From assembly GCA_035573435.1 (NCBI GenBank), contig DATMZR010000036.1:1-64000 (forward strand): a stretch of 64,000 bases of DNA, given 5' to 3'. This DNA comes from Solirubrobacterales bacterium. GTDB lineage: Bacteria > Actinomycetota > Thermoleophilia > Solirubrobacterales > 70-9. Positions within the stretch are counted from its first letter, which is position 1, and each line of letters starts with the position of its first letter. Shown here in pieces: positions 2,314 to 24,556 of this stretch. A model generated the notes under the pieces. The model searched no databases, had not been told where the DNA came from, and was given only the letters and a program-made list of their open reading frames with translations. The position numbers were made by a program, and so were the translations under genes.

Positions 2314-2664
2314 CTAAACGGGATCTTGGCGTGCTTCTCTCAACAGCGTCGACACTCGTTGCCGTGTGACGCCGAACCTCTCCGCGATAGCCTCCATCGT
2401 CATCCCTTCCTGGTGCAGGGCGAGGGCCTCGGCGCGGCGCACGCGACCACCGAACCCATCAAGGGCTTGCCTACTCTCCGTGACCAGTTGGACGAGGAGT
2501 GGCCCCCTTGCGCCTTCGACTATCTCCGTATACGACAGCCCGTCTGAGTGCTGTCGCTCGATCTCGGCGATCCTGCGCTTGATCACTGCGATGTGCTCGA
2601 GATTGAGGTCGAGGACGCGGTCCAGCTCGAGCAGAGCCTTTCGGAAGGGGTCAATCGGGGCCAA
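2314..2664 (-). CDS. Small HTH-type transcriptional regulator
   Basis: 116 residues from a TTG start, chosen because alignment with the partial paralogue at 1-205 begins there. The N-terminal ~50 residues are helical and charged (KALLELDRVLDLNLEHIAVIKRR). The C-terminal third holds a clear helix-turn-helix, MEAIAERFGVTRQRVSTLLRE (split as MEAIAERFGV and TRQRVSTLLRE, residues ~86-107), of the kind seen in region-4-like and Xre/MerR-like proteins. It is divergent from the sigma gene at 2840 across heptamer repeats, so autoregulation and control of the sigma gene are inferred. No effector domain is recognised. Confidence 0.7.
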   Translation of the reverse strand: MAPIDPFRKALLELDRVLDLNLEHIAVIKRRIAEIERQHSDGLSYTEIVEGARGPLLVQLVTESRQALDGFGGRVRRAEALALHQEGMTMEAIAERFGVTRQRVSTLLREARQDPV

Positions 2665-2692
2665 GTTTCAAGAAGGATAGGCCGCAACTAGC

Positions 2693-2795
2693 GGATTTGC
2701 AAGCCCCATTGCCGCAACAGCACTTACAGCATGACCTATTGCCGCAAGCCCAGTTACAGCAATAGCGGTTACAGCAATGGGGATTGCGCTATGAT
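2693..2795 (+). promoter_or_regulatory. Divergent promoter with tandem TTACAGCAAT / ATTGCCGCAA repeats
   Basis: About 100 bases with repeated ATTGCCGCAA (two copies), TTACAGCA (three copies) and GCAATRG/CYATTGC heptamers, ending in ATTGCGCTATGATC. TATGAT at 2790-2795 is a near-consensus -10, with GTTACA 16 bases upstream. The last ~15 bases match the promoter at 275-290. The sigma gene starts 45 bases downstream. Operator repeats for the paralogous HTH regulators are inferred. Confidence 0.55.
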
Positions 2796-2839
2796 CCTGG
2801 CCGCTGGAGGAGACCCTTAAGCGCGGATCGGAGGTTCGA

Positions 2840-3658
2840 ATGACCGCTTACGCCACAGTCGCACCAAGTCGGGCCCGCACCGCCCCCTCGACTCCTCAGA
2901 TTAAGAGAGCAAGGCGCTGCGACCGCCCGGGTCCGCTCAGCGAATCCGCTCTTTTGCGCCGATACGCAAGGACTCGGGACCCACAACTCCAGGAAGAGCT
3001 CCTGCGTCGCTTTCTGCCCCTGGCAAGGAGTCTCGCGCTTCGCTATCGCGGCACCCCGGAGCCACTCGATGACCTAATTCAGGTCGCGAGCCTCGGCTTG
3101 GTCAAAGCGCTCGCCGGCTTTGACCCGGAGCGCGCCGACAACTTCAAGGCCTACGCGGCGCCCACCATCCTGGGCGAGCTTCGCCGCCACTTCCGGGATC
3201 GCGTCTGGGACCTGCGGCTGCCCCGCGTCCTCCAGGAGCGGACCATGGTCGTGCGCAAGGCGGCGGGGAAGCTCTCCGACGAGCTGGGAAGGACGCCGAC
3301 CGTCGCGCAGATCGCGGAGCGCATCGAGCTCTCCGAGGAGGAGGTCTTCGAGGCGGTCGAGGCGGACTCCGCGCGTCGCACGCTTTCGCTTGACGAGAAG
3401 CGCGCCCCGGAGGATTCCGAGTCGCAGCCGATGCTCGAGACGATCGGCACGCCGGACGCCGGATATAGCCGAGTTGAGGACCAGCTCGCCGCTGACGCGG
3501 TGGACCTGACTTCACGCGAGCGCACCGTGCTTCGCCTTCGCTTTGAGGACGATTTGCCGCAGCATGAGATTGGCCGCCGGCTCGGTATCTCTCAGATGCA
3601 GGTCTCGCGGGTCATGCGTGGAGCGCTCGGCAAGGTCCTTGAGGCAGTTAAGGCGTAG
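2840..3658 (+). CDS. sigF: RNA polymerase sigma factor, SigB/SigF/SigG family
   Basis: 272 residues. An N-terminal extension of ~35 residues precedes region 2 (LLRRYARTRDPQLQEELLRR, then DLIQVASLGLVKAL in 2.2 and AYAAPTILGELRRHFRD in 2.3-2.4). Region 3 follows (LSDELGRTPTVAQIAERI) and region 4 ends with HEIGRRLGISQMQVSRVMRG as the -35-binding helix-turn-helix. This domain set is that of stress or sporulation sigma factors controlled by partner switching. It is close to the second copy at 39036, but has the longer N-terminus and its own repeat-rich promoter instead of a flanking STAS gene. The nearest antagonist gene is at 418. Confidence 0.9.
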   Translation: MTAYATVAPSRARTAPSTPQIKRARRCDRPGPLSESALLRRYARTRDPQLQEELLRRFLPLARSLALRYRGTPEPLDDLIQVASLGLVKALAGFDPERADNFKAYAAPTILGELRRHFRDRVWDLRLPRVLQERTMVVRKAAGKLSDELGRTPTVAQIAERIELSEEEVFEAVEADSARRTLSLDEKRAPEDSESQPMLETIGTPDAGYSRVEDQLAADAVDLTSRERTVLRLRFEDDLPQHEIGRRLGISQMQVSRVMRGALGKVLEAVKA

Positions 3659-3695
3659 CCGATTTTGGAATTACGACGACTGGAGGAAGAAGCGT

Positions 3696-3836
3696 ATGGG
3701 TGGCATATCGCTGGGAGGGATCATCGTCATCATCGGGATCGTCGCGATGATCTTCTGGAGCTTCTGGCTCGGTCTGATCATCACGCTCATCGGCCTGATC
3801 GCGTTTGGAGGTTTCGCGCGGGGCAAGTGGTACTGA
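3696..3836 (+). CDS. Small membrane protein, 46 residues
   Basis: ATG 3696 follows a GGAGGA 8 bases upstream, 37 bases after the sigma-factor stop, so it is probably in the same operon. Nearly the whole protein is hydrophobic: two helices (GGIIVIIGIVAMIFWSFW and LGLIITLIGLIAFGG) with a basic C-terminus FARGKWY. No family is recognised. Tiny membrane proteins next to stress sigma factors are common and often stress-induced; that link is inference. Confidence 0.6.
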   Translation: MGGISLGGIIVIIGIVAMIFWSFWLGLIITLIGLIAFGGFARGKWY

Positions 3837-3919
3837 GTCCCGCTGAGCTTTCAGTGAGAACTCGGTGCTCGAAGGCGGGTGACGAGGGCTCGGTGGACGC
3901 GCACTAAAGGCGGCAGGCC

Positions 3920-4411
3920 TCAGGCCTGATCGCCAGCGGGTTCGAGCGCGAACTGCGCCGCCTCGAGTCGGAATGCTTCGACACCCGTTCGCTGCGATTC
4001 GGCGCGGGCAATCAGCTCGCCGAGTTCGAACGCCGCCAGCCTGTCCGCGACAGTCGCTTGGAGAACCTTCCACATCCCGATCTTGCCGGTGATGCCGATC
4101 AGTAGGAACTCGAGCTCGACCAGGCGGCTGAGCGGAGAGTAGCCCCGCAGCTGGCCGTTGAGCTTCAGCCGCGCGAGCTTCTCGGCGCCCCAGCCGGCGA
4201 CGCGCTTGACCTGGTTCTTGTGCACGCCGAGCGTCTCCATCACCGCCTCCAGCGTGTCGCGATCGGCCTCGATCCCCGTGGTGAGCTCGGCGAGGAAGTC
4301 GCCCAGCTCCGTTCCCTGGTTGCTCGCCCGCGAGCGGCGGGCGAGCTCGACGCCGGTGGTCGCGCCGGCGAGGTGGTCGTTGAGGTAGATGCCCAGGAAT
4401 CTGGTGTTCAT
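3920..4411 (-). CDS. Conserved helical protein of unknown function
   Basis: 163 residues, starting MNTRFLGIYLNDHLAGATTGVEL and predicted to be mostly helical. It has no signal peptide or membrane span. The N-terminus contains HLAGATTGVELARR and the middle ETLGVHKNQVKRVAGWGAEK, which look like a packed helical bundle. I recall similar unnamed proteins in actinobacteria near stress genes but cannot assign a domain. It is convergent with the sigma operon and lies downstream of a tiny membrane ORF on the same strand (4457-4537). Confidence 0.6.
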   Translation of the reverse strand: MNTRFLGIYLNDHLAGATTGVELARRSRASNQGTELGDFLAELTTGIEADRDTLEAVMETLGVHKNQVKRVAGWGAEKLARLKLNGQLRGYSPLSRLVELEFLLIGITGKIGMWKVLQATVADRLAAFELGELIARAESQRTGVEAFRLEAAQFALEPAGDQA

Positions 4412-4456
4412 CGTCGACGCGCCCGCTTCTGTGTCCCGTTGGAACCTAGGCCCCGC

Positions 4457-4537
4457 TCACAACAGCCTGATGAGCAGATTCACCAGGATGGTGAGCGTGA
4501 TCGAGAGGATGATCGACCACGCCAAACAGCCAGGCAT
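4457..4537 (-). CDS. Very small membrane protein, 26 residues
   Basis: This ORF is too short for a usual ORF cut-off. It starts MPGCLAWSIILSITLTILVN and ends in NLLIRLL: one hydrophobic helix with a basic residue near the C-terminus. The short CLxWSIxLSxxLTxLxNLLIR pattern resembles tiny actinobacterial membrane proteins I have seen, so I think it is real. It lies 45 bases upstream of the 3920..4411 gene on the same strand. Upstream there is only a weak AGGTTCGG. Confidence 0.45.
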   Translation of the reverse strand: MPGCLAWSIILSITLTILVNLLIRLL

Positions 4538-4695
4538 GAACCGAACCTGCGTGCGTTCGCCAGATCGCTTCCAGATCACGAACATTGCTCACCGCTGCAC
4601 ATCAGTGTCTACCGGGACAAGCCCGGCCGAGGCCCCGATTGAAGCCTCGGCCGGACTGATGCCATTGAAGATGCGGCGGCCCCTTCACACCTTGC

Positions 4696-5733
4696 TCAGC
4701 CGCTCGAGTTCCCAGCCAGCTGCTCGGCTCTCTGCAGAACTCCGGGACGCTCCTTATGGCGACGCTCATACTCGTGCACCTCGCGGCTCTGCTTCGCGTC
4801 CGCGCGGGCCAGGGTCTTCCTGATCTCATCGACCCTCAGCTCGTCGTAGCCGGGCCATGGCTCGTTACCGCGTAGGGAATCGATGCGGCTGAGCACGGTT
4901 GAGCGGTTCTCGTGCTTGCGCTCATAGGCATCGATCTTGGCCAGGTCGATTTGCGAGAGCTCGCTTAGCTTCCCGAGCACCTCGTCGACGTTGAGCGAGT
5001 CGTAGTTCGCGATGGCCAGGTCCTGCTCAGAGGCAACAGCTCCCTTTAGCTCACCCTCGGCCTGGGCGACGCCTGGAACCCGTCGCGCCTGTCGCGCGGT
5101 ACCCCGAGCCTGGGAGCGAGCCTTCTTCGCGGCCTTCTTGGTCGTCCGCCCAGCGCTCCTTCCCGCACCACGGACCGCCTCGGCGGCACCCGTCTTGGCA
5201 AGGTCGTAAGCCGGCTCGCCCTTGAGCTCCGCGCGAATCACCTTGTCCACAAGCGTCGGGACTCTCTCCTGCAGGACGGCGAGCATGCGCTCCTCGTCCT
5301 TCCGGATCGAGGCGGCGAGCCGCGCCGTCTTCTTGTCGCCTATGCGACCGGCGTAGTGCTCAAGCGCCCGATACGTGGCGATCTCGAGCGCCTCCGTCGC
5401 GCTCTCGTCCTTAGCGTTCTTCAACAGCTTCTCTTCGCCGCTGGCTCCGCGGAGAAGATCGAAGGGGCCCTTGCCGAGGGCGAGGGCCTGGCCGACGAGG
5501 CTCTGCAGTGCCCCGACTCCCGCCGCGACCATGCTCCGACTCTCGCCGAGCTCCTCCAGCCGCTGCTGGAGGCTCGTCGCGTGGGACTCGGTCTCGCGCA
5601 GGTGGCGCTCCAAGTCAGTTCGGTAGGCGCCGCGCGGTGTCATTGCGATATGAGCCTGCAGCGTTCGGGTCAGAGCCTGCTCGCTTGCGTGGGCCTCGTT
5701 CAGGTATTGGATTGTCTTCTGGGCTGAGTTCAT
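4696..5733 (-). CDS. DUF892/YciF-like ferritin-fold protein with basic H1-like linker
   Basis: 345 residues. ATG 5733 follows AGGAGC at good spacing; the longer open frame has no comparable site. Residues 1-160 look like a DUF892 (YciE/YciF, ferritin-like four-helix) domain: QYLNEAHASEQALTRTLQAH, then RHLRETESHATSLQQRLEEL and IATYRALEHYAGRIGDKKTA. Residues ~205-250 are very basic (GRTTKKAAKKARSQARGTAR), like a histone-H1 or nucleoid-protein tail. The last ~95 residues hold two similar helical hairpins (NVDEVLGKLSELSQIDLAKI and RVDEIRKTLARADAKQSREV) of the SAP/Rho-N-like helix-turn-helix type. A stress-induced DNA-protective protein is inferred. Confidence 0.7.
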   Translation of the reverse strand: MNSAQKTIQYLNEAHASEQALTRTLQAHIAMTPRGAYRTDLERHLRETESHATSLQQRLEELGESRSMVAAGVGALQSLVGQALALGKGPFDLLRGASGEEKLLKNAKDESATEALEIATYRALEHYAGRIGDKKTARLAASIRKDEERMLAVLQERVPTLVDKVIRAELKGEPAYDLAKTGAAEAVRGAGRSAGRTTKKAAKKARSQARGTARQARRVPGVAQAEGELKGAVASEQDLAIANYDSLNVDEVLGKLSELSQIDLAKIDAYERKHENRSTVLSRIDSLRGNEPWPGYDELRVDEIRKTLARADAKQSREVHEYERRHKERPGVLQRAEQLAGNSSG

Positions 5734-5840
5734 GGGGTGCTCCTGTCTGTATCTAGTGATTGGTGGCCGTCGGTTGGTGCCACTGAGAATCAGTGCCGCT
5801 GTGGCAATCGTGGGCAGGATCGCCGTCGGCGTAGGAGTCA

Positions 5841-5872
5841 GGCCCGAGCGGGCTCTGGATGCCGCTCGGGCC
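5841..5872 (-). terminator. Hairpin between two minus-strand genes
   Basis: A perfect 11-bp stem (GGCCCGAGCGG with CCGCTCGGGCC) and 10-base loop lie 25 bases past the stop of the 5898..6227 gene. There is no T-tract, so termination is likely but not certain. Confidence 0.5.
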
Positions 5873-5897
5873 ACTTCAGAGTGAGCTTCGCTCCTGG

Positions 5898-6227
5898 TTA
5901 GGAGCGACCGTTCCGATCACCGTCGTCGCGACTCTCGGTGTATGGATCGCTCGATCCGGACTTCGCGAGACCGCGACTAATGAAATAGGCGCCGGCGACG
6001 ATGGCGACGTAGAGCCATGCCTGGCGGGCAATGAACTCGTCGGTCCCGTTGGTATCGCCACCCTTGATTACGGCGGCGCTGACGAGAATCGCTACCACGA
6101 CGCCGACCATTGCCCAAAACTCGGTGGTCTTGAAGGCCTGCTTGGTCTCAGTCGTCAGGCGGCGGATCCGGCTTTCGCGCCGGATCGGATCGGTGCGCAC
6201 GGCAGCGTGCTTGGTTCCAGCTTCCAT
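5898..6227 (-). CDS. Two-span membrane protein, unknown function
   Basis: 109 residues, with ACAGGAGACAG just upstream of the ATG. A basic cytoplasmic N-terminus (RRESRIRRLTTETKQAFKTT) leads into a first membrane helix, FWAMVGVVVAILVSAAVI. A short loop (GGDTNGTDEFIARQ) and a second helix, AWLYVAIVAGAYFISRGL, follow, and the tail is hydrophilic. The arrangement TEFW..VGVV..L..AA, loop, WLYV...A.YFISRG is one I recall in many small actinobacterial membrane proteins of unknown role. It is in line with the DUF892 gene, separated by a hairpin. Confidence 0.65.
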   Translation of the reverse strand: MEAGTKHAAVRTDPIRRESRIRRLTTETKQAFKTTEFWAMVGVVVAILVSAAVIKGGDTNGTDEFIARQAWLYVAIVAGAYFISRGLAKSGSSDPYTESRDDGDRNGRS

Positions 6228-6395
6228 AGGTGCTGTCTCCTGTCTTGAGGGTGTTCCCGTCTGGGCCGTGCAAGGTGACCGCCGGTCACTCTCGCCCCTT
6301 TGCTCCCAGAGCGATTTGGCAGGTGCTTCCCGTTTCGCTTTCGGTGAAGCAATGCTGCCTTGCTTCTAAGCGGTTACCCCGCGATAGGACACTGA

Positions 6396-6419
6396 AAACG
6401 GGAGCGTCAGGGACCGGAC
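6396..6419 (+). repeat. 24-base inverted repeat, left copy
   Basis: AAACGGGAGCGTCAGGGACC and the following GGAC match the reverse complement of 9647-9670 at 23 of 24 positions. The pair brackets SnoaL run B and two small genes (3.2 kb between copies). Confidence 0.6.
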
Positions 6420-6445
6420 GCAACGCGGCTGGAACAGCCATGTAG

Positions 6446-6820
6446 ATGGCGCTTTCTCGAGTTGGAAACACGGGTCAGGTTGAGATGCCATCTCGCTCCG
6501 CGTGCTCTCTTGGGCATGCGTGGGAGGCCTACGGCCCGGAGATCGTGGCCAACGGTAAGGGGCACGGGCTGCCGGAAACGCGGCCATGGGCCTATTGGCA
6601 CTTCGAGCTTGGCGAGGACTACCCCGAACGTGACCATGCGGCGATTCGGCTGGCCGAGCTCGGTCTCCTACGTGACGACGAAGTCGCCGCGATCGCCGAA
6701 CGCGCCAATAAGGGGCGCACACGGATCGGCACCACCCGCGAGCACCACGACGGTCAGGGCCATAGCGCTGACCGGGACGCCGTGGCGCTGCACGAGGCCG
6801 TCACGCGGGCGCTGCGGTAA
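6446..6820 (+). CDS. Hypothetical protein with PWAYWHFE motif
   Basis: 124 residues, no signal peptide. The readable core is RPWAYWHFELGEDYPERDHA, then IRLAELGLLRDDEVAAIAER and a C-terminal TREHHDGQGHSADRDA. The PWA.W.FE...P...A..LAELG.L.D.E pattern resembles short proteins I associate with prophage-derived regions, but this is a weak recollection and no function is claimed. ATG 6446 is taken as the start; no strong ribosome site is visible. It lies just inside the left inverted repeat and 90 bases before the leader of run B. Confidence 0.45.
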   Translation: MALSRVGNTGQVEMPSRSACSLGHAWEAYGPEIVANGKGHGLPETRPWAYWHFELGEDYPERDHAAIRLAELGLLRDDEVAAIAERANKGRTRIGTTREHHDGQGHSADRDAVALHEAVTRALR

Positions 6821-6909
6821 ACGCTCACGATGGCTTTCTGGTTTTCCTTACGCCGAGCCGGTCAGCGGTAGCGGAGACGGACCTCGGCGATTTCGACCTT
6901 CCCCCTGGC

Positions 6910-9797: not shown

Positions 9798-9900
9798 GGG
9801 AGATACTGCGCGGGCAATGGTCGCAGGAGAACGTCGAGATCGTGCGGGCTGCTTACGACGCCTTCAATCGCGGCCACCGGGATGCGCGGTTCACGTTCCG
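9798..9900 (+). pseudogene. Leader copy 3 plus truncated SnoaL head
   Basis: A leader with two changes (GCGGGAGATACTGCGCGGGC, then A) is followed by ATGG TCGCAGGAGAACGTCGAG: an extra G after the ATG shifts the frame. The shifted frame reads the family helix 1 (SQENVEIVRAAYDAFNRG) and then loses similarity within ~25 codons. No tail is present. The remaining bases up to the tRNA at 10085 hold no recognisable gene. Confidence 0.65.
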
Positions 9901-10084
9901 CGTCTATCAGCGGGCGGCGAAGCGGCGCGAGCGGCTGGCCGGCGAGCACCTGGCGGCGTTTCGACCGGGCGCTCGAATGGGCAGGGATGGGCAGGGAGCA
10001 CGTTCCTGACACCGTTGCTGACCAGCCGGCCACTGGTGCGAGGTCCGCCGGAAACCGCGCAGCGAAGCTAGAATCCGTGCCTGC

Positions 10085-10158
10085 GCGGCTGTAGCTCAGT
10101 TGGCTAGAGCGTCTGCTTGCCATGCAGAAGGTCGTGGGTTCGAATCCCATCAGCCGCT
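10085..10158 (+). tRNA. tRNA-Gly (GCC)
   Basis: Complete cloverleaf: acceptor GCGGCTG/CAGCCGC, D stem GCTC/GAGC, anticodon stem TCTGC/GCAGA around loop TTGCCAT (anticodon GCC), T arm GTGGG TTCGAAT CCCAT, discriminator T. CCA is not encoded. The 3' 44 bases recur at 12895 as part of a 151-base direct repeat. Confidence 0.95.
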
Positions 10159-10265
10159 TTTCTCAGATTCCGCTTGCTTGCAGGGAATCTCGGATGGCGG
10201 CAGCGCAGCTTCGTCGTCCGTCGGTTCGCGTGAAATCGCTCCCAGTGCCCATTGGTGCCCATTGG
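10115..10265 (+). repeat. 151-base direct repeat with tRNA-Gly 3' half, left copy
   Basis: It begins in the anticodon stem-loop (GCTTGCCATGCAGAAGGTCG) and runs past the tRNA through TGAAATCGCTCCCAGTGCCC to a doubled TGCCCATTGG. It aligns without gaps to 12895-13045, perfect in the tRNA part and ~85-90% beyond. The pair brackets the delta-60 gene. Confidence 0.8.
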
Positions 10266-10368
10266 TGGCTCTGGTGGTAGGGTCGTCTGAAAGGCGCGTG
10301 CAGGGGGGAGGAGTGCAGCGACCATCAATGCACGAAGGCTCGTAGTCAGCACCAGCCTCGTCGCTGCC

Positions 10369-12747
10369 GTGCTGGTCAGCGTCATCCCCTCGGCGAGCGC
10401 ACAGGCCGCGCCCGGGGACCTCGATGCCACGTTCTCCGGCGACGGCAAGCAGAGGACTGACTTCGGCGTCGGCATCAGCCGCGCGGCGGCAACGGCGATC
10501 CAGCCGGACGGCAAGATCGTCGCTGTCGGCACCCAGTTCTCGTCCCAAGACTGGGACTTCGCCCTCGCCCGCTACAACCCCAACGGCACCCTCGACACGA
10601 GCTTCTCCGGCGACGGCAAGCTGACCACCGATTTCGGCGGCTCCGACGTGGCGAATGGGGTGGCCCTGCAAGGCGACGGCAAGATCGTCGCAGTCGGCGG
10701 CGGCAACGGCGACTTTGCCCTCGCCCGCTACAACCTCAACGGCACCCTCGACTCGAGCTTCTCCGGCGACGGCAAGCAGACGACCGACTTCGGGAGCAAC
10801 GGAGACCAGGCAAGCGAGGTGGCCCTCCAGGCAAACGGCAAGATCATCGCGGTCGGCGGGAAAGGGCCCGCAGGCTTTGACGACACGACGTTCGCCCTCG
10901 CCCGCTTCAACCCCAGCGGCACCCTCGACACGAGCTTCTCCGGCGACGGCAGGCAGACGACCAACTTCGGGGAGACCTTTCGTGGGGACAGGGCGAACGG
11001 GGTGGCCCTGCAAGGCGACGGCAAGATCGTTGCGGTCGGCAACGGCGACGGGGGCGACAACCAAGACTTCGCCCTCGCCCGCTACAACCCCAGCGGCACC
11101 CTCGACACGAGCTTCTCCGGCGACGGCAAGCTGACCACCGACTTCGGCGGGTCCGAAGCAGCGAACGGGGTGGCCCTGCAAGGTGACGGCAAGATCGTCG
11201 TAGTCGGCGTTGGTGGCACCAGCAGCTTCGCCCTCGCCCGCTACAACCCCAACGGGTCACTCGACCCAAGCTTCTCGGGAGACGGCAAGCAGAAGACCGA
11301 CTTCGGCGGCGGTGAGGCGACCGGAGTGGCTATCCAGGGGAACGGCAAGATCGTCGCTGTCGGCGGCGACAGCAACAGTCGCAACTTCGCCCTCGCCCGC
11401 TACAACCCCAACGGCACCCTCGACACGAGCTTCTCCGGCGACGGGAAGCAGACGACCGACTTCGGAGGGGAAGACAAGGCGAACGCGTTGGCCCTCCAGG
11501 GAGACGGCAAGATCATCGCGGTTGGGGAGGGCGGGAACAGCGACTTCGCGCTCACCCGCTACAACCTCAACGGCAGCCTCGACACCACGTTCTCCGGCGA
11601 CGGCAAGCAGACGACTCCCTTCGGCGGCCCCTATGAAGCCCAGGGGGTGGCGCTCCAGAGCGACGGCAAGATGATCGTGGTCGGCGATGGCTTCTTCATC
11701 ACCCGATACAACCCCAACGGGTCACTCGACCCAAGCTTCTCGGGAGACGGCAAGCAGACGACCGATTTCGACCAGTTCGGCCAAGACGCGACGGGGGTGA
11801 CGATTCAGGATGACGGCAAGATCGTCGTCGTCGGCTCCACTGCTGGGCCCATGCTTTCCGCGTATTTCGCTGTCGCCCGCTACAACCCCAACGGCACCCT
11901 CGACACGAGCTTCTCCGGTGACGGGAAGCAGACGGCGATTTCGGTGGGTCACGACGAGGCACATGGGGTGGCGATTCAGGGCGACGGCAAGATCGTCGTG
12001 GTCGGCTCAGGATACGACGTCGTCACGGGCGATTCCGAGGGCGTGCTCGCCCGTTTCAACCCCAACGGCTCGCTTGACACGAGCTTCTCCGGCGACGGCA
12101 AGCAGACGACCGACTTCGGAGCCTGGAGTGGGGTGGCGATCCAAGGCGATGGCAAGATCGTTACGGTCGGCGGGGCTGACGGGGGCGGCACCGGCTTCGA
12201 CTTCGCAATCGCCCGCTTCAACCCCAACGGCACCCTCGACACGAGCTTCTCCGGTGACGGTACGCAGACCACAGACTTCGGGGACGACGAAGGAGCGAGT
12301 GGGGTGGCGCTCCAGGGCGACGGCAGGATCGTCACGGCTGGCGTCGGTGGCGGTGGCACCTTCGGTGACTTCGCACTCGCCCGCTACGACACCGATGGGT
12401 CGCTCGACACGAGCTTCTCCGGCGACGGCAAGCAGACAACCGACTTCGGATTCGGGGCCGACGACGCGGCGAACGGGATCGCGATCCAGGGCGACGGCAA
12501 GATCGTCGCGGCCGGTCGCGCTGGCGGAGGGGCTACCGCCAACGACTTCGCCCTCGCCCGCTACAACACCGACGGCACGCTCGACCCGAGCTTCTCCGAC
12601 GATGGCAAGCGGAGGACCGACTTCGGGGGCGACGACGCGGCAAACGGGGTGGCGCTCCAGGCGGACGGAAAGATCGTCGCCGTCGGGCGCGGCCTGGGTG
12701 CCGACGGCACCAGCGATTTCGCGCTCGCCCGCTATCTCGGGGGCTGA
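10369..12747 (+). CDS. Secreted delta-60-repeat protein
   Basis: 792 residues from the first standard in-frame start (GTG). About 14 tandem copies of a ~54-residue unit, each with GDGKIVAVG, FALARYNPNGTLDTSFSGDG and K.TTDFGG, match the delta-60 repeat described in large bacterial surface or secreted proteins and probably form a beta-propeller or solenoid. Only a few residues vary per repeat, and the DNA repeats are also highly alike. The N-terminus looks like the cut end of a signal peptide: in-frame codons upstream encode ARRLVVSTSLVAAVLVSVIP, ending in SASAQAAPG, but no ATG/GTG/TTG lies between the TGA at 10288 and 10369. The ribosome-site-like GGGGGGAGG at 10302 precedes an out-of-frame GTG (10313) and an in-frame ATC (10324). 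Bracketed by the tRNA-Gly-derived repeats. Confidence 0.85.
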   Translation: MLVSVIPSASAQAAPGDLDATFSGDGKQRTDFGVGISRAAATAIQPDGKIVAVGTQFSSQDWDFALARYNPNGTLDTSFSGDGKLTTDFGGSDVANGVALQGDGKIVAVGGGNGDFALARYNLNGTLDSSFSGDGKQTTDFGSNGDQASEVALQANGKIIAVGGKGPAGFDDTTFALARFNPSGTLDTSFSGDGRQTTNFGETFRGDRANGVALQGDGKIVAVGNGDGGDNQDFALARYNPSGTLDTSFSGDGKLTTDFGGSEAANGVALQGDGKIVVVGVGGTSSFALARYNPNGSLDPSFSGDGKQKTDFGGGEATGVAIQGNGKIVAVGGDSNSRNFALARYNPNGTLDTSFSGDGKQTTDFGGEDKANALALQGDGKIIAVGEGGNSDFALTRYNLNGSLDTTFSGDGKQTTPFGGPYEAQGVALQSDGKMIVVGDGFFITRYNPNGSLDPSFSGDGKQTTDFDQFGQDATGVTIQDDGKIVVVGSTAGPMLSAYFAVARYNPNGTLDTSFSGDGKQTAISVGHDEAHGVAIQGDGKIVVVGSGYDVVTGDSEGVLARFNPNGSLDTSFSGDGKQTTDFGAWSGVAIQGDGKIVTVGGADGGGTGFDFAIARFNPNGTLDTSFSGDGTQTTDFGDDEGASGVALQGDGRIVTAGVGGGGTFGDFALARYDTDGSLDTSFSGDGKQTTDFGFGADDAANGIAIQGDGKIVAAGRAGGGATANDFALARYNTDGTLDPSFSDDGKRRTDFGGDDAANGVALQADGKIVAVGRGLGADGTSDFALARYLGG

Positions 12748-12894
12748 GCGCCGGTAGTTGCCATTGGGCACTGCACCCACCCCTGTGCCCAAACCAATCG
12801 AAATCCCCAATCCCCGGGGAATCTCGCCCGTGCGCTTAGCGCGAGAACGGCTTCACAAAGCCGAAAATGCCGAAGCAAGCGCACGCGGCAGCAG

Positions 12895-13045
12895 GCTTGC
12901 CATGCAGAAGGTCGTGGGTTCGAATCCCATCAGCCGCTTTCCTCGGATTCCGCTTGCGTGCAGGGACTCTCTGAACACGGCGGCGCAGCATCGTCGTTCG
13001 TCGGGTCGCGTGAAATCGCTCCCAGTGCCCATTGGTGCCCATTGG
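12895..13045 (+). repeat. 151-base direct repeat with tRNA-Gly 3' half, right copy
   Basis: It carries the 3' 44 bases of tRNA-Gly (from the anticodon loop to the discriminator) but no 5' half, so it is not a functional tRNA. Same length as the left copy. The flanking stretch 12748-12894 shows nothing else recognisable. Confidence 0.8.
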
Positions 13046-13063: not shown

Positions 13064-13082
13064 GCGAGATACTGCGCGGGCG
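13064..13082 (+). repeat. Array leader, copy 4
   Basis: Identical 19-base leader directly before ATG 13083, 18 bases after the end of the right tRNA-Gly repeat. Confidence 0.6.
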
Positions 13083-13372
13083 ATGTCGCAGGAGAACGTG
13101 GAGTTGATCCAGCGTCAGATCGAGGCGCTCAACCGAGGGGACTGGGAGGGGACCAGATGCTCGAAGGGCTGACCTTCGAGGCGAAGGAAATCGTGGACAG
13201 GGACGATCTGGTCGCTGCGGTGGGACGAATCAAGGGCACCGGAAGCGACAGCGGGGCCGAGACTGAGGTCCCGATCGCCTTCGTGTCGCGGTTCCGTTAC
13301 GGCCTGGTAGCGCGCGTGGAGGAGTACCTCGATCCCGGGGAGGCCCTCGAAACCGCCGGGCTTTCGGAGTAG
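13083..13372 (+). pseudogene. SnoaL-like unit with internal deletion
   Basis: The head is intact (MSQENVELIQRQIEALNRGD) but after ~24 codons, near 13150-13160, the frame changes. The C-terminal half continues in another frame (EGLTFEAKEIVDRDDLVAAV, ETEVPIAFVSRFRYGLV, EALETAGLSE, stop 13370). Relative to other units, ~40 residues including the DPDVEW and YRGH segments are missing, so an out-of-frame deletion is inferred. The constant ends are preserved. Confidence 0.7.
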
Positions 13373-17673: not shown

Positions 17674-17744
17674 GGCGCCTTGGCGGAGTGGCTACGCAGC
17701 GGCCTGCAAAGCCGTTTACACCGGTTCGATTCCGGTAGGCGCCT
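17674..17744 (+). tRNA. tRNA-Cys (GCA)
   Basis: Acceptor GGCGCCT/AGGCGCC, anticodon loop CTGCAAA (GCA) on stem GCGGC/GCCGT, T arm ACCGG TTCGATT CCGGT, discriminator T as usual for Cys. No encoded CCA. Its 3' 44 bases plus 3 flanking bases are duplicated at 24723. Confidence 0.95.
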
Positions 17745-17747
17745 CTC
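17701..17747 (+). repeat. 47-base direct repeat (attL-like), within tRNA-Cys 3' half
   Basis: It runs from GGCCTGCAAAGCCG in the anticodon arm to GGCGCCTCTC just past the tRNA end and is identical to 24723-24769. The 7.0 kb between copies contains cargo genes but no integrase. Confidence 0.8.
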
Positions 17748-17748
17748 A

Positions 17749-17776
17749 CGGAAACCCCGCTACGGCGGGGTTTCCG
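17749..17776 (+). terminator. Strong hairpin after tRNA-Cys
   Basis: A perfect 12-bp stem (CGGAAACCCCGC with GCGGGGTTTCCG) with a TACG tetraloop, starting 5 bases past the tRNA. There is no T-tract. It probably ends the tRNA transcript. Confidence 0.6.
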
Positions 17777-17868
17777 CTTGCCTGGTCGGGCTTCAGTTCT
17801 TGAAGCAGGTACCGAACGGGTACCGAAGTGTGGACCGCATCTAGCTCGCCTGGTCGGGGATCGGCGAC

Positions 17869-18471
17869 GTGCGGAACGACACCCTGACCGGGGGCGGCCT
17901 TGGTGCAGTCGACCTCAAGCCCGGTTCCGTCGGCACCTCGGAGGTGGTGAACAACTCGTTGACCGGGGCGGACATCAACGAATCCCTCCTGGGGAAGGTC
18001 CCTAATGCCGACAAGCTCGACGGCATCGACTCGTCCGGCTTCTTGGAATCGGGGAACGTCCAGAAGCTGATTTACGAGGCCGCCGCGACCGAGGACCCGC
18101 CGATTACGGACATCGCCACCGTGGGTCCATACACACTCAAGGCCCGGTGCAAAGACTTCTCTGGCCCCGCCTTCGCAGGTCTTGAACTCTTTGCGAACGG
18201 CCCCGCGGGTAGCGCCGACTTCGCGTACCGCCGGATCCTCAATGACGGGGGCTCTGGTTCCGACCTCTCGAACACCATCCCCATCCCAGCCGATTCGTTT
18301 ACCGCGATCTTCGCCGGGCAGGCCTTCGAGCCCGACTATGAGCGTAAGTTCGGGACCGCGATGCTCAAGACGGGGTCGGTGCTGATCCAACTGGACCTTC
18401 ACGCCGTGACGGATGCCGATCCCGCCGGATACACCTGTCGCCTCTACGGCACCGCCACGGTGGGAACGTAG
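17869..18471 (+). pseudogene. Secreted repeat-family protein lacking its signal peptide (5'-truncated)
   Basis: 200 residues from a GTG. It opens with DVRNDTLTGGGLGAVDLKPG, SVGTSEVVNNSLTGADINES and DKLDGIDSSGFLE, which is the middle of the N-terminal module seen whole in the proteins at 18677 and 27092. Those two have a signal peptide and FSDDIVDN before this point; here an in-frame TAG at 17842 and the tRNA-Cys repeat replace it. The C-terminal ~130 residues (ARCKDFSGPAFAGLELFANG, DSFTAIFAGQAFEPDYERKF, VLIQLDLHAVTDADPAGYTC) look like a beta-sandwich. The gene appears cut by recombination at the island's left edge, so it is probably not exported or expressed. Confidence 0.6.
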
Positions 18472-18480
18472 GGAGGAAAC

Positions 18481-18510
18481 GAAGCCCTCGAAGCCGCCGG
18501 GCTCTCGGAC
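18481..18510 (+). repeat. SnoaL tail scar (constant 3' end without a SnoaL gene)
   Basis: GAAGCCCTCGAAGCCGCCGG and then GCTCTCGGAC match the constant tail of SnoaL units (EALEAAGLSD), but the body upstream is the secreted-protein gene at 17869. The stop codon has been lost. Confidence 0.7.
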
Positions 18511-18551
18511 CAGGGCACAACCCGATACGACGACTACTAGATTCAGCGCGA

Positions 18552-18679
18552 GGTTGACCCGGCCTGCCCGGAGTGAGAGGCTTGCACTTCCGGCGGTCGC
18601 CTGACCCGCCGACCAGCCCTAACGGACTCGCCGACGCGCTTGGCCTCCGCCTTAACCGGCTCGACGGGAGGTTCCAATG
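18552..18679 (+). repeat. 128-base 5' module, copy 1
   Basis: It aligns without gaps to 21491-21618 (about 88% identical). Both copies end with the ribosome site and start codon (GGGAGG, 6-7 bases, ATG) of a secreted-protein gene, but the two proteins are unrelated. It contains GGCGGTCGCCTGACC, CTAACGGACTCGCCGACGCG and CTTGGCCTCCGCC blocks. Confidence 0.75.
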
Positions 18680-19372
18680 CATTCCAGGCTTCGTCCGTCT
18701 CCAGCGATGGTGGTCGCGCTGATCGCCCTGTTCGTGGCGCTTGGTGGCAGCGCGGCGGCGCTTTCGGGTTCGAACACCGTGTTTTCGGACGACATCGTCG
18801 ATAACCAGGTCTTCAGCGCCGACGTGCGCAACGACACCCTCGCCGGAGGGGGTCTCGGTGCGGTCGACCTCCGTCTCGGCTCCGTCGGAGGCAGCGAGGT
18901 CGCCAACAGCTCGCTCGGAGCCAGCGAGCTCTCGCACTCGATCCCGGCGGCGCGCGTCACGCGCAGCAGCGCTCAGGCCATCCCGGACAGTCAGAACACG
19001 AGCCTGGCCTTCGACCAGGAGCGCTATGACACGGCGGACGTGCACGACAACGCGACCAACAACTCGCGGCTTACCGCACCGGTGCCGGGCATCTACGCGG
19101 TGACCGCGCAGTTCACGTGGGGAGGATCCGCAGGGAGTGGGTCTCGCTTCGCGGGGTTGATGAAGAACGGATCCACGTTGATCGCCCGCAGTCAGGAGTT
19201 GCCCGGTGACGACGACGAGAACATCACCACGCAGGTGCGACTGGTGGCGGGCGACTACGTCGAGGTCCTGGTGCTTCAGACCAGCGGCGGCAGCCTCAAC
19301 GTCGCCGCCAACGGCCTCGCCCAGCAGATCACCCCCGAGTTTTCGATGAGTTGGCTTGCGCCGGGGCCGTAG
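18677..19372 (+). CDS. Secreted protein with SDDIVDN-type N-terminal module and C1q/TNF-like C-terminal domain
   Basis: 231 residues. A signal peptide or anchor (RPSPAMVVALIALFVALGGS) is followed by the conserved GSNTVFSDDIVDNQVFSADV, RNDTLAGGGLGAVDLRLGSV and SEVANSSLGASEL module. The C-terminal half (FDQERYDTADVHDNATNNSR, LTAPVPGIYAVTAQFTWG, GDYVEVLVLQTSGGSLNVAA) has the ..GIY.V.A...W and GDYVEV.V.Q.. strands of a C1q/TNF-like jelly roll. It is therefore probably a trimeric extracellular adhesion or matrix protein. The ATG follows GGGAGG in the shared 128-base 5' module. It ends 30 bases before another SnoaL tail scar. Confidence 0.7.
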   Translation: MHSRLRPSPAMVVALIALFVALGGSAAALSGSNTVFSDDIVDNQVFSADVRNDTLAGGGLGAVDLRLGSVGGSEVANSSLGASELSHSIPAARVTRSSAQAIPDSQNTSLAFDQERYDTADVHDNATNNSRLTAPVPGIYAVTAQFTWGGSAGSGSRFAGLMKNGSTLIARSQELPGDDDENITTQVRLVAGDYVEVLVLQTSGGSLNVAANGLAQQITPEFSMSWLAPGP

Positions 19373-19401
19373 CCCGCGACCGGGCCGTCCGTCGCTCCAG
19401 A

Positions 19402-19453
19402 GAAAGCCCTCGAAGCGGCCGGGCTGCGGGAGTAGCGAGATACTGCGCGGGCG
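19402..19453 (+). repeat. SnoaL tail scar fused to leader copy 6
   Basis: GAAAGCCCTCGAAGCGGCCG GGCTGCGGGAGTAG (tail with stop, LRE type) runs straight into the 19-base leader at 19435-19453, followed by ATGTCGCAG and then unrelated sequence. Neither a SnoaL body before it nor one after it is present. Confidence 0.75.
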
Positions 19454-19469
19454 ATGTCGCAGTCACTCA

Positions 19470-20408
19470 TCAGGGCTGGGGGATCGGCTGCCAGCTCGGG
19501 CTGGCAATCGAATCTGTAACGACCCGCCCGTCAGTCCCGTGACGGTCGAAGGTGAGGAGCTTGCTGTGGCAGGTCTCGGTCAAGGCGTCGCAGCTAAACC
19601 ACGCCGCGGCGATCCGGTGTCCGTTCGGCGAGAACACGGGTTCTTTGGCGATATCAGTGATGGCTCGCTTTCGGCGACCGTCGGAGCGCATGAGAATGAC
19701 GTCGTCGTCGCAGGTATGCCCGTCGCAGTTGCTGACGCGGTGAAAGACGATGTGGGAGCCGTCGGGGTCAAAGTCGGGGTTATCGGCATTCGGGTTGGCG
19801 CGAAGCAAGCGCTTGTGGGTGCCGTCTCGGCGCATCACCCAGATCCCCCGCTCGCGCTCCTCTCGCGGCGCTCCGGAGAAGACGATCCGCCTGCCATTGG
19901 GCGAGAACGCGGGGTCCCTGGCCTCCCGGTCACTGGTCAACCGCACGGGGTCGGTCCCGTCGGTGCGGACGATGACGATGTTGCCCTGTGTGTTCCAGCC
20001 GCGCGTCATGACGATGCGAGCGCCGCCGGGGGAGAAGGAGGGCGACGATTCGGGGGTGGCCCGGTGGGTGACCTGGCGCTGATCGGTCCCGTCCGCGCTC
20101 ATCGTCCAGACGTTCTGGCTCTGGTCGATGTACGCAGATCCCCGGATGAAGGTGAGCCTTCGTCCGTCAGCCGACCAAGAGGGTTCGGTATCGGCGATCG
20201 CGTTGTCGGTCAGCTGGGTCGGGTCACCCCCAGCGGGCGAGATCGTGAAGATCTCCCCAGACGAGGAGGATCTGTAGATGTCCCCAGTTGAGTAGGCGAT
20301 TAGCCCGTTGGCCCCTGGATAGGCCGCCCATGAGACCGCCGGGGAGAGTGCAAGCAGCGCGCCAACGACCCCTACCCCCGAAAGCAGACCTCCCCGGATC
20401 GGCTTCAC
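19470..20408 (-). CDS. Secreted TolB/PD40-type beta-propeller protein
   Basis: 312 residues. A signal peptide (GGLLSGVGVVGALLALSPAV, cleavage near SWAAYPG) precedes six or so PD40/WD40-like blades with the usual signatures: TEPSWSADGRRLTFIRGS, ESSPSFSPGGARIVMTRG, RDPAFSPNGRRIVFSGAP, DNPDFDPDGSHIVFHRVS, KEPVFSPNGHRIAAAWFS. Such propellers bind partners or sugars outside the cell; no enzymatic residues are seen. A Cys pair (CDGHTCDDD) and a second (CDALTETC) may form disulfides. The C-terminus lies only 16 bases from the leader/head remnant at 19435. It is opposite in strand to the cargo around it. Confidence 0.8.
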   Translation of the reverse strand: MKPIRGGLLSGVGVVGALLALSPAVSWAAYPGANGLIAYSTGDIYRSSSSGEIFTISPAGGDPTQLTDNAIADTEPSWSADGRRLTFIRGSAYIDQSQNVWTMSADGTDQRQVTHRATPESSPSFSPGGARIVMTRGWNTQGNIVIVRTDGTDPVRLTSDREARDPAFSPNGRRIVFSGAPREERERGIWVMRRDGTHKRLLRANPNADNPDFDPDGSHIVFHRVSNCDGHTCDDDVILMRSDGRRKRAITDIAKEPVFSPNGHRIAAAWFSCDALTETCHSKLLTFDRHGTDGRVVTDSIASPSWQPIPQP

Positions 20409-20524
20409 ATGCTGAGTGTAGGGCGCTCAGACGCAGGGGTGGGCGTTACACAGACCGGTGTTGCGTGTTTGACCCTAGGGTGGGTTGGCCCAGGCGACGA
20501 GCGGCGGATAATGGGCATAGGGCG

Positions 20525-21307
20525 GTGAAACGATTGGCGACGGTCATCTGTGGCGCGGCGCTGTGTCTGTTCCTCGCGGCGTGGGGAGCCAGCCCGGCGG
20601 CAGCCAAACGCGCTACCTGCTTCGGCGAGCGGGCGACGATCGTGGGCACGCCCGGCAACGACCGGATTCGGGGGACCGGCGAGGTCGACGTGATCGCCGC
20701 CCGCGGCGGCAACGACGTCATCCGGGGTCGCGGCGAGGCGGACCAGGTCTGTGGCGGCCCGGGTAAGGACGAGATGCGCGGTGGGGCCGGACAAGACCTG
20801 CTGAGGGGCAACCGGGGCGCCGACAGCGCGAACGGAGGCGTGCGCAAGGACTTCATCTTCGGCGCGCGCGGAGCGGACCGCATCCAGGGCGGCGACCGCA
20901 CGGATCGCCTGTGGGGCGGCCGGGGCGGCGATCAGATCTGGGGGGACCGAGGCGGTGGAGCGGGCAACGACACGGTCTCCGGCGGCGCCGGGGCAGACAC
21001 GATCCGTGGCGGGCCCAGCGAACGAGCTTTCCGCAGGCAGGTGCTCGATGGCGACGCCGGTCGGGACACGATCTTCGGCGGTTCGGGTCCGGACTCGATC
21101 CAAGGCGACGACGGCAACGATCGCGTTCTCGGGGGGGCGAGTCGCGACCTTGTCGGCGGCGGAGACGGTGATGACGATCTCTTCGGCGAGGCCGGAGACG
21201 ACTGGTTGTTGGGCGAGCTTGGCAATGACCTTCTCAACGGCGGCGACGACACCGATCGGTGCGATCAGGGGCCGGGAACCGGCTTGGTCGTCAACTGCGA
21301 GTCGTAA
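20525..21307 (+). CDS. Secreted RTX-like calcium-binding repeat protein
   Basis: 260 residues from GTG 20525, chosen because a signal peptide begins there (KRLATVICGAALCLFLAAWG, ASPAAAKR). The rest is ~14 copies of a degenerate GGxGxDxIxG nonapeptide (GTPGNDRIRGTGEVDVIAAR, GGNDVIRGRG, GGAGADTIRGG, GEAGDDWLLGELGNDLLNGG) that forms a calcium-binding parallel beta-roll. Cys residues near both ends (ATCFGE, DQVCGG, DRCDQG, VVNCES) suggest disulfide caps. There is no catalytic domain. It is part of the cargo between the scars at 19435 and 21329. Confidence 0.8.
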   Translation: MKRLATVICGAALCLFLAAWGASPAAAKRATCFGERATIVGTPGNDRIRGTGEVDVIAARGGNDVIRGRGEADQVCGGPGKDEMRGGAGQDLLRGNRGADSANGGVRKDFIFGARGADRIQGGDRTDRLWGGRGGDQIWGDRGGGAGNDTVSGGAGADTIRGGPSERAFRRQVLDGDAGRDTIFGGSGPDSIQGDDGNDRVLGGASRDLVGGGDGDDDLFGEAGDDWLLGELGNDLLNGGDDTDRCDQGPGTGLVVNCES

Positions 21308-21328
21308 CAGACACGCGAGCTGATGCCC

Positions 21329-21348
21329 CCCGCCGGGCTGCGGGAGTA
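21329..21348 (+). repeat. SnoaL tail scar, partial
   Basis: CCCGCCGGGCTGCGGGAGTA then A: the last ~20 bases of the LRE-type tail with TAG changed to TAA, 22 bases after the RTX-like gene. From here to the leader at 21459 there is no gene; a T-tract lies at ~21390. Confidence 0.65.
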
Positions 21349-21458
21349 AGGACGCTCACCCCGCCGAATCCACCCTGAGATTTTCAAGTTTTTTTTACGC
21401 CGAGCCACTGGGGCCGTCCTACGCCTTGCGGGTGCGCTGCGCGACCGTCCCCCTGGGC

Positions 21459-21487
21459 GCGAGATACTGCGCGGGCGATGTCGCAGG
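21459..21487 (+). repeat. Array leader copy 7 with truncated head
   Basis: The exact 19-base leader plus ATGTCGCAGG, then GTGGGTTGACTC, where the 128-base 5' module begins. The SnoaL head is broken after 9-10 bases, as at 19454. Confidence 0.7.
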
Positions 21488-21490
21488 GTG

Positions 21491-21618
21491 GGTTGACTCG
21501 GCCTCTGCGGAGTGAGAAGCTTGCCTTTCCGGCGGTCGCCTGACCTGCCGACCAGCCCTAACGGACTCGCCGACGCGCTTGGCCTCCGCCCAAACCGGCT
21601 CCACGGGAGGCTCCAATG
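21491..21618 (+). repeat. 128-base 5' module, copy 2
   Basis: Gapless match to 18552-18679, joined here almost directly to a truncated SnoaL head. It ends with CACGGGAGGCTCCAATG, the start of the gene at 21616. Confidence 0.75.
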
Positions 21619-22518
21619 CGTCCAATGCCTCGGCCTCATATCAAGAAGCGGCCGACCGTCGTTCTCGGCCTCGCCACGGCTGCGGCCCTCGGCGTGGGCT
21701 TGGTCGCCTTCCCGGGAATTGCCGCCGCCCCGCCGCCGCCGGTGGTGCCGAGTTGTACCCCCCAGTTCTCATCTGCGAGCCGATCCTGCGTGAGGCTCAA
21801 GGTCACGGGGCTTCAGGGGCCGGCGGGAATTCAGGCTGGGGCCGAGAACATCCGCCTGGGCGTCCGCACGCGTTCCACGCTTATTTTTCCGAGCGCGAGC
21901 GAGGTAACGAGCGTGGTGCTGCGATTCGATGACGACATCCTGCTGAACCTTGGGGGGATCCCGACCTGTCCCGCTTCGGAGCTGACCGGCAAGAAGATCG
22001 CCCAGGCGTGGGAGCAATGCGGCCCGGGCGCCGATGGCAGTCCACCCAGCGAGGGCAACGCCTATCTGTCGACCGGGTTGGGGCCGTTCGTCAGCGGGGT
22101 CGCGTCGACCACGGGGGCGGGGACCGACGCGTGCGTGATGGCGTTCAAGGGGGCCAACAACACCCAGATCGTGTTCTACGCGCGGTTCCCTATTGGCAAT
22201 CCGGACAGTGAGTGCAACAACCCGGCGGCCAACATGGGGGGCACGGGGACGGTTCTCTTCACGGGCACCCTCTCGCACCAGCCCCTGGCCTCGCCCTACG
22301 ACTGGACGCTCACGGTCCCGAACATCCAGGTCGCGCACCCCCCCCTGGACGACTTCTACGGGACCCTCACGCGTGCAACCGCCTTTCGGGCACGGTGCCC
22401 CGCCGGGCAAGACCCCCACCAGATCGAGGGGGTCGTCGCCTACACCAATTCCGGTGATCCGACCGACACGATCTCGCCGCCGTACACGGGAACGGAGGAT
22501 CCATGCGCTGCTCCCTAG
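21616..22518 (+). CDS. Secreted protein of unknown family
   Basis: 300 residues. An export signal (KKRPTVVLGLATAAALGVGL, VAFPGIAAAPPP) is followed by a Pro-rich PPPPVVPSC and a mature domain with at least nine Cys (SCTPQ, SRSCVRL, PTCPASEL, EQCGPG, DACVMAF, SECNNP, ARCPAG, DPCAAP). Strand-rich segments such as SEVTSVVLRFDDDILLNLGG and NTQIVFYARFPIGN suggest a beta-sandwich. I recall similar actinobacterial extracellular proteins but no named domain. It sits between a leader/head remnant (21459) and a tail scar (22539), exactly where a SnoaL body would be. Confidence 0.65.
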   Translation: MRPMPRPHIKKRPTVVLGLATAAALGVGLVAFPGIAAAPPPPVVPSCTPQFSSASRSCVRLKVTGLQGPAGIQAGAENIRLGVRTRSTLIFPSASEVTSVVLRFDDDILLNLGGIPTCPASELTGKKIAQAWEQCGPGADGSPPSEGNAYLSTGLGPFVSGVASTTGAGTDACVMAFKGANNTQIVFYARFPIGNPDSECNNPAANMGGTGTVLFTGTLSHQPLASPYDWTLTVPNIQVAHPPLDDFYGTLTRATAFRARCPAGQDPHQIEGVVAYTNSGDPTDTISPPYTGTEDPCAAP

Positions 22519-22538
22519 CGAGACCGGATTCCTAGGCT

Positions 22539-22563
22539 CCAAGCCGCCGCCCGCTCGGAGTAG
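22539..22563 (+). repeat. SnoaL tail scar before a solitary unit
   Basis: CCAAGCCGCCGCCCGCTCGG then AGTAG resembles the constant tail with a short internal loss; GCG and the head of the unit at 22567 follow. Together with 21459 it frames the secreted-protein gene. Confidence 0.6.
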
Positions 22564-22566
22564 GCG

Positions 22567-22995
22567 ATGTCGCAGGAGAACGTCGAGAATGCCCGCCGAA
22601 GCTACGCGACGCTCAATGAGGCGTATCGCGGCGGCGACCCCAACCTCTTCCTTCCGATCCTCAAGGAGCTCTGGGACCCAGATTGCGTATTTGAGCCAGC
22701 GGGGGTGCTTCCCGACAGCAGGCCTCGCCCGCATCGCGGATGGGACGGAGTTCTCCAGTTCATCGGCAACCAGATGGACGCCTTCAGCGAGGGCTGGGTG
22801 GAGGCCTTCGAGTTCATCGATCTCGGGGACTACCTGATCGTTCCCTATCGGTTTGGCGGACGTGCCAGACACACCGGACTCGAGGTTGAGTTCTCCTTCG
22901 TGCACCTGATCAGGATGCGTGACGGAAAGGTGACCCGATGCGAAGTCCACAAGACCAAGGCCGAGGCCCTCGAAGCCGCCGGGCTGCGGGAGTAG
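22567..22995 (+). CDS. SnoaL-like NTF2-fold protein, solitary unit
   Basis: 142 residues, among the longest. Head MSQENVENARRSYATLNEAY, then PILKELWDPDCVFEPAGVLP, DSRPRPHRGWDGVLQFIGNQ, FEFIDLGDYLIVPYRFGGRA, HTGLEVEFSFVHLIRMRDGK, EALEAAGLRE. RHTGLEVE matches KARHTGIELS in unit 15512. It begins 3 bases after a tail scar instead of a leader and ends with the LRE-type tail. Confidence 0.8.
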   Translation: MSQENVENARRSYATLNEAYRGGDPNLFLPILKELWDPDCVFEPAGVLPDSRPRPHRGWDGVLQFIGNQMDAFSEGWVEAFEFIDLGDYLIVPYRFGGRARHTGLEVEFSFVHLIRMRDGKVTRCEVHKTKAEALEAAGLRE

Positions 22996-23144
22996 AGCGC
23001 TCACGACCCGCCCCTGGACTCCGCGAAAAGCTCCCTCGGCGGGCCTGATGAGACGCGATTCGATTCGGGTTGCCCCCCGCTCACGCGGTCGGTCGATACG
23101 CGCTAGACGGATATCCTCCGGCTAGTCGATGGAGGGAGTTGGGG

Positions 23145-23651: not shown

Positions 23652-23670
23652 GTCGCCGGTCACCCCGCTC

Positions 23671-23689
23671 GCGAGATACTGCGCGGGCG
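23671..23689 (+). repeat. Array leader, copy 8
   Basis: Exact 19-base leader adjoining ATG 23690, 19 bases after the stop of the exported-protein gene. Confidence 0.6.
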
Positions 23690-24133: not shown

Positions 24134-24252
24134 GTGGTCCCCGGGTCCGGTCCGGTAAGCCTCTGACCGTTCCCCCTCGCTACCCTCAGCGGTAGCCCGG
24201 GGGGGGCGCCGTGAGGTCGCGTTCAGCACCGGATTCTCTACGAGAGGAATAC

Positions 24253-24492: not shown

Positions 24493-24556
24493 TCGGGCAG
24501 GGTGACCACTCACCACCAAGAAACGAGTAAGCCGAGATCCGCGACCTCGGCGATCA

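What the first reader, a model, noticed from the sequence alone, without database searches (positions are those of the whole stretch)
10085..13045. 151-base tRNA-Gly-derived direct repeats around a single delta-60-repeat gene
Seen: a gapless 151-base repeat containing the 3' 44 bases of tRNA-Gly flanks one gene only (2.8 kb). The repeat extends ~100 bases beyond the tRNA, longer than typical att cores, and the copies differ outside the tRNA part, so the event is not recent. This is the second tRNA-end duplication in 15 kb, also inside the SnoaL region, with SnoaL fragments hugging both sides (9798, 13083).
Basis: partly seen in the sequence, partly recalled or inferred. Interest (0 to 1): 0.6.

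Follow-up and report, generated by a model that had tools for sequence, protein, structure and literature searches.

The report
Single-gene mobile cassette in tRNA-Gly
The repeats mark the two ends of a small mobile piece of DNA that inserted itself into a tRNA gene carrying one gene and no enzyme of its own, and this bacterium has at least eight tRNA genes with such inserts, most of them one or two genes long.

Summary
The repeat is real: 10115-10265 and 12895-13045, gapless, 139/151 identical. It is not a simple duplication. It is an integrase attachment arm: the 3' half of tRNA-Gly from the anticodon loop (44 nt) plus a 107-nt P' arm that ends exactly at two 10-bp iterons (GTGCCCATTG x2). 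A second arm (GGGCAC-N13-GTGCCCAAACC) lies upstream of the right copy. That motif occurs four times in 232 genomes of the order, each time directly upstream of a displaced tRNA 3' half. Integrases of the order that sit beside tRNA genes carry the same iterons at the same spacing; they encode the integrase tail WAP(L/M)GT. The window's P' arm is such a tail, a stub of a lost integrase. So 10085-12938 is an integrase-less, att-bounded mini-element with one delta-60-repeat gene, inserted beside an older element of which only core and P' arm (12895-13045) remain. At least eight tRNA genes here have displaced 3' halves 0.85-7 kb downstream, with a tandem array at tRNA-Val(CAC), yet only Xer recombinases were found. 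A sister genome has the empty site. Trans-mobilisation is inferred, not shown. New variant of integrase-less tRNA islands (CIME-like).

The parts
10085..10158 (+). Intact tRNA-Gly(GCC), the attachment gene
   Evidence: ARAGORN
10117..10123 (+). Anticodon loop TTGCCAT, inferred 7-bp strand-exchange region
   Evidence: 5' fragments end at tRNA position 39 or 41 and 3' fragments begin at 31-33 in G000 and relatives; the overlap is the loop, flanked by stem TCTGC/GCAGA. Inference.
10115..10265 (+). Left repeat copy: tRNA 3' half plus P' arm (attL side)
10245..10265 (+). P' arm iterons, 2x GTGCCCATTG(G), period 10, 86 nt after the tRNA
   Evidence: on the minus strand they encode WAPMGT, the tail motif of the tRNA-linked integrases
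10369..12747 (+). Cargo: secreted-looking delta-60-repeat (DUF5122 beta-propeller) protein, 14 repeats
12761..12795 (+). P arm: GTGCCCAATGG on minus (12761-12771) facing GTGCCCAAACC on plus (12785-12795)
   Evidence: 4 exact hits of GGGCAC-N-GTGCCCAAACC in 232 genomes, all before a displaced tRNA 3' half
12895..12938 (+). Displaced 3' half of tRNA-Gly (attR core)
12939..13045 (+). Second P' arm with iterons at 13025-13045: remains of a second related element in tandem
   Evidence: no further tRNA-Gly 3' half found in the genome
9851..9961 (+). C-terminal remnant of a tyrosine integrase of an island on the 5' side of tRNA-Gly
   Evidence: 51% over 37 aa to the integrase in L042; homologous remnant before tRNA-Gly in G002
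9817..9879 (+). SnoaL N-terminus fused to the integrase remnant
13081..13372 (+). SnoaL pseudogene with its own N- and C-terminus; flanking, not part of the element

Best explanation
The segment is a non-autonomous integrative mini-element of about 2.8 kb in tRNA-Gly(GCC). A tyrosine integrase supplied in trans recombined the element's attP with the anticodon loop. The incoming 3' half restored the tRNA and the old 3' half was displaced to 12895. The element kept the two arms an integrase needs (P' with two iterons, P with the facing pair) but lost the integrase gene except for the tail that doubles as the P' arm, and carries one delta-60-repeat gene. It sits directly against the core and P' arm of a second, related element, which makes the 151-nt repeat. 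Shown by sequence: both repeat copies, both arms, the match of arms and spacing to integrase-bearing elements, the empty site, absence of an integrase in the assembled genome. Inferred: that the arms bind integrase, that it moved as a one-gene unit, that the integrase acted in trans.
For: Empty site in G001. P motif: 4 hits in 232 genomes against 0 for the reversed control, all 4 before displaced tRNA 3' halves: Gly and Val(TAC) here, Gly and Pro in G157. The G157 Pro element is about 16 kb with phage-like genes and an integrase whose tail carries the iterons. Period-10 iterons 70-95 nt after tRNAs: 11 of 32 flanks in loci with an integrase, 3 of 64 others (all tRNA-Gly with displaced 3' halves, one of them this one), 0.3% of random places. 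P' arm translates to WAPMGT like integrase tails; L097 keeps a longer integrase stub. Mismatches confined to the middle. Similar 0.6-3.6 kb units in tandem at tRNA-Val(CAC) here and in G161.
Against: No compatible integrase in the genome, only XerC/XerD-like; the genome is a draft (97% complete, 43 contigs), where mobile DNA is easily lost. No second copy of this cassette at another site, so movement as a unit is not seen. Integrase stubs in L097 and L236 fit deletion in place as well. The older element's far end was not found.
Confidence: 0.6

Rival explanations
1. Decay in place: a full island with its integrase integrated here, then shrank by deletion to arms plus one gene (a CIME in the sense of the ICE/IME literature). 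It never moved as a one-gene unit.
For: The P' arm is an integrase tail; L097 and L236 keep 44-69-codon stubs. No integrase in the genome. CIMEs in tandem are known (PMC5704250).
Against: No other remnant genes between the arms; both P' copies end exactly at the outer iteron; one- and two-gene units recur in tandem with identical 45-nt 3' halves at tRNA-Val(CAC).
Confidence: 0.3
2. Segmental duplication: a tandem copy of the tRNA 3' end and its downstream flank arose by ordinary recombination, with the delta-60 gene in between.
For: The repeat includes sequence beyond the tRNA; SnoaL genes nearby share leader sequences that could recombine (families D6 and D7).
Against: Does not explain the P arm, the iterons at integrase spacing, the boundary at the anticodon loop, or the mismatch-free ends.
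Confidence: 0.05
3. Assembly artefact joining two tRNA-Gly loci.
For: Draft genome; contigs break at repeats.
Against: Same architecture in an unrelated assembly (G157/L097) and synteny of both flanks with G001.
Confidence: 0.03

Closest known systems
CIME (cis-mobilizable element: island that lost integration and transfer genes but kept attL and attR; PMC5704250)
   Same: att-bounded, no integrase, found in tandem with related elements at a tRNA gene
   Different: CIMEs are described as decayed ICEs/IMEs; here one gene only, many tRNA targets, arms derived from an integrase tail, no sign of conjugation genes
tRNA/tmRNA genomic islands as catalogued by Islander (PMC4383910)
   Same: Intact tRNA plus displaced 3' half, anticodon-loop site; 5'-half islands are also known (159 of 3919)
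   Different: Islander requires an integrase in the island; this element has none
Tycheposons (tRNA-anchored cargo elements; as described in PMC10872708)
   Same: Cargo unit next to a tRNA, tyrosine recombinase chemistry
   Different: Described as 4-200 kb with a recombinase; here 0.6-7 kb without one
Integron gene cassettes
   Same: Works somewhat like it: small gene units added in tandem next to a fixed site
   Different: No integron integrase, boundaries are tRNA halves; recombination site is a tRNA anticodon loop with P and P' arms

Membership tests
tRNA-targeted integrative island | Intact tRNA gene and displaced fragment in the same orientation, fragment downstream for a 3' half | tested here: met
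tRNA-targeted integrative island | Integrase gene inside the island | tested here: not met
   Interior holds only the delta-60 gene; PF00589 search of own genome finds two Xer-like proteins
tRNA-targeted integrative island | Empty site in a relative | tested here: met
   G001: rnhA, tRNA-Gly, SnoaL, hydrolase
CIME | attL and attR retained, integrase lost | tested here: met
   By sequence only:
CIME | Derived from an ICE or IME and mobilised in cis by an accreted element | not testable with these tools
   No transfer genes seen; needs population data or experiment
Integron cassette | Integron integrase (IntI) | tested here: not met
   No tyrosine recombinase above cut-off other than two Xer-like proteins
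Integron cassette | attC site at the cassette boundary | not tested
   No attC model was run; the boundaries seen are tRNA halves
Arm sites of the order's tRNA-linked tyrosine integrases | Period-10 iterons 77-87 nt from the tRNA 3' end | tested here: met

The most novel reading that the evidence does not exclude
In this order tRNA genes serve as docking sites for a cassette economy: one- and two-gene units with conserved arms, made by keeping only an integrase tail as P' arm, are moved in trans by integrases of related prophages and islands and pile up in tandem, functionally like integron arrays without an integron.
Probability: 0.3. Interest if true: 0.8.

Novelty: new variant of a known kind. 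Interest (0 to 1): 0.58.

Why it matters
Island finders such as Islander demand an integrase, so cassettes like this are invisible to them. If they move, one resident integrase could mobilise many small gene units across tRNA genes, a route of gene capture between integrons and genomic islands. The P and P' motifs found here give a direct search key.

Tried and rejected
Viral-contig hits of the P motif are in coding-like sequence without tRNAs and look like chance. Rokubacterial and viral iteron hits have no tRNA nearby and were not pursued. The other delta-60 genes of this genome were checked for tRNA halves and arms; only those on C41 and C16 (both tRNA-Val(CAC) halves) are in such units. 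Joining the SnoaL pieces at 9798 and 13083 was rejected since both carry the N-terminus. ARAGORN's tRNA-Ala on C41 and its many 'fragments' are false calls inside delta-60 genes.

Full report
Observation. The two copies at 10115-10265 and 12895-13045 are gapless and share 139 of 151 positions. The first 44 nt are positions 31-74 of tRNA-Gly(GCC) at 10085-10158. The 12 mismatches all fall at repeat positions 47-111; both ends are identical, which random placement gives in 4 of 10,000 simulations. The displaced tRNA half has no tRNA function to conserve, so an old single duplication that drifted would not leave it and the far end intact while the middle differs by about 18%. Two related elements that share functional ends fit better.

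Boundary. Across relatives, 3' halves of tRNA-Gly start at tRNA position 31-33 and 5' halves end at 39 or 41. The shared piece is the 7-nt anticodon loop TTGCCAT flanked by the stem, the usual layout for a tyrosine integrase core (inference from known integrase biology).

Arms. The repeat ends at two tandem copies of GTGCCCATTG 86 nt past the tRNA. GTGCCCAWTGG occurs 7 times in the 2.58-Mb genome, 5 of them here. A facing pair, GGGCAC-N13-GTGCCCAAACC, lies at 12766-12795. In 232 genomes of the order the pair (N11-15) occurs four times, the reversed control never, and each time a displaced 3' tRNA half follows: tRNA-Gly here, tRNA-Val(TAC) on C31 of the same genome, tRNA-Gly and tRNA-Pro in G157. 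L097, the G157 tRNA-Gly locus (a Solirubrobacteraceae MAG record), has the same plan at the same spacing with unrelated cargo (an ATPase-like regulatory protein) and no complete integrase.

Link to integrases. The G157 tRNA-Pro element is about 16 kb, holds phage-like genes and an integrase whose 3' end carries the iterons. Integrases of the order that face a tRNA 3' end show period-10 iterons, mostly TGGTGCCCAW, 77-87 nt from the tRNA. Such iterons are found at 11 of 32 tRNA flanks in loci with an integrase and 3 of 64 others; those three are all tRNA-Gly with displaced 3' halves downstream (this one, G157, G021); random places give 0.3%. The iterons encode WAP(L/M)GT in the integrase tail. 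The window's two P' arms read QWAPMGTGSDFTR... on the minus strand and differ from each other by amino-acid changes and a stop, so this is a non-coding stub; L097 and L236 keep longer stubs that match integrase C-termini. The genome itself has only two PF00589 proteins; one meets the NCBIfam cut-off of a Xer-type model and the other reads as Xer-like.

Neighbourhood. In G001 of the same genus, rnhA is followed by an intact tRNA-Gly, SnoaL genes and an alpha/beta hydrolase: the empty site. In the window's genome the rnhA neighbour on contig C43 is only the 5' half (1-41) of tRNA-Gly, as in G002. So a second island sits on the 5' side, replacing the 5' half; its integrase survives as a C-terminal stub at 9851-9961, fused to a SnoaL start. 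That C43 and C36 adjoin is inferred. Integrases directly upstream of tRNA 5' ends group largely in one clade (6 of 7). Both kinds of fragment flank tRNA-Gly in G029 as well.

Scale. RF00005 and BLAST on downstream stretches find displaced 3' halves at tRNA-Arg(CCT) 0.85 kb, Val(TAC) 1.0 kb, Asp 1.4 kb, Lys 2.1 kb, Gly 2.7 kb, Ser(CGA) 5.6 kb, Cys 7.0 kb and three at Val(CAC) at 1.6, 3.5 and 4.1 kb; halves of tRNA-Met and a further Val(CAC) half lie on other contigs. Most intervals hold one or two genes: a GFA-like enzyme, an ABC transporter pair, a phosphatase plus 2H phosphoesterase, SnoaL, delta-60 (annotations from reading the translations; only delta-60 was confirmed by profile). The Val(CAC) units share a P arm. 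Small integrase-less units at tRNA-Val(CAC) also exist in G161 (two in tandem), G025 and G075.

Verdict. An att-bounded, integrase-less mini-element is well supported. Whether it moved as a one-gene cassette in trans (preferred) or shrank in place (CIME, PMC5704250) is open. Arm binding is inferred throughout.

Noticed in passing
window 17674-24767: tRNA-Cys(GCA) with its 3' 45 nt displaced 7.0 kb downstream; a different iteron pair, GGTACCGAA x2 (17808, 17819), lies about 62 nt after the tRNA, suggesting another integrase family.
   Followed up: partly
L172 (G000:C41) 2593-6847: Tandem array at tRNA-Val(CAC): three identical 45-nt 3' halves bounding a 1.6-kb delta-60 unit, a 2.0-kb two-gene unit and a 0.6-kb unit; another such half is next to a delta-60 gene on C16.
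   Followed up: yes
L039 (G000:C43) 2271-2311: 5' half (1-41) of tRNA-Gly next to rnhA: left end of an island that replaced the tRNA 5' half and so supplies its promoter region.
   Followed up: partly
L066-L070, L072, L083: Integrases placed directly upstream of tRNA 5' ends (Gly, Arg, Met, Cys, Ala); six of seven form one clade, the minority 5'-half orientation.
   Followed up: partly
window 10325-10369: The delta-60 frame is open for about 26 codons upstream of its first GTG and would give a full signal peptide only from an ATC codon after a GGAGG; the original start may be lost or unusual.
   Followed up: no
G000 contigs C1, C10, C16, C19, C25, C41, C43: Delta-60 genes are numerous in this genome but absent at the same threshold from three same-genus genomes.
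   Followed up: partly
L040 2885-5837 (G014) and L042 2668-7911 (G029): Integrase-less tRNA-Gly intervals of 2.9 and 5 kb with AbiE-like toxin-antitoxin/defence genes (read from translations).
   Followed up: no
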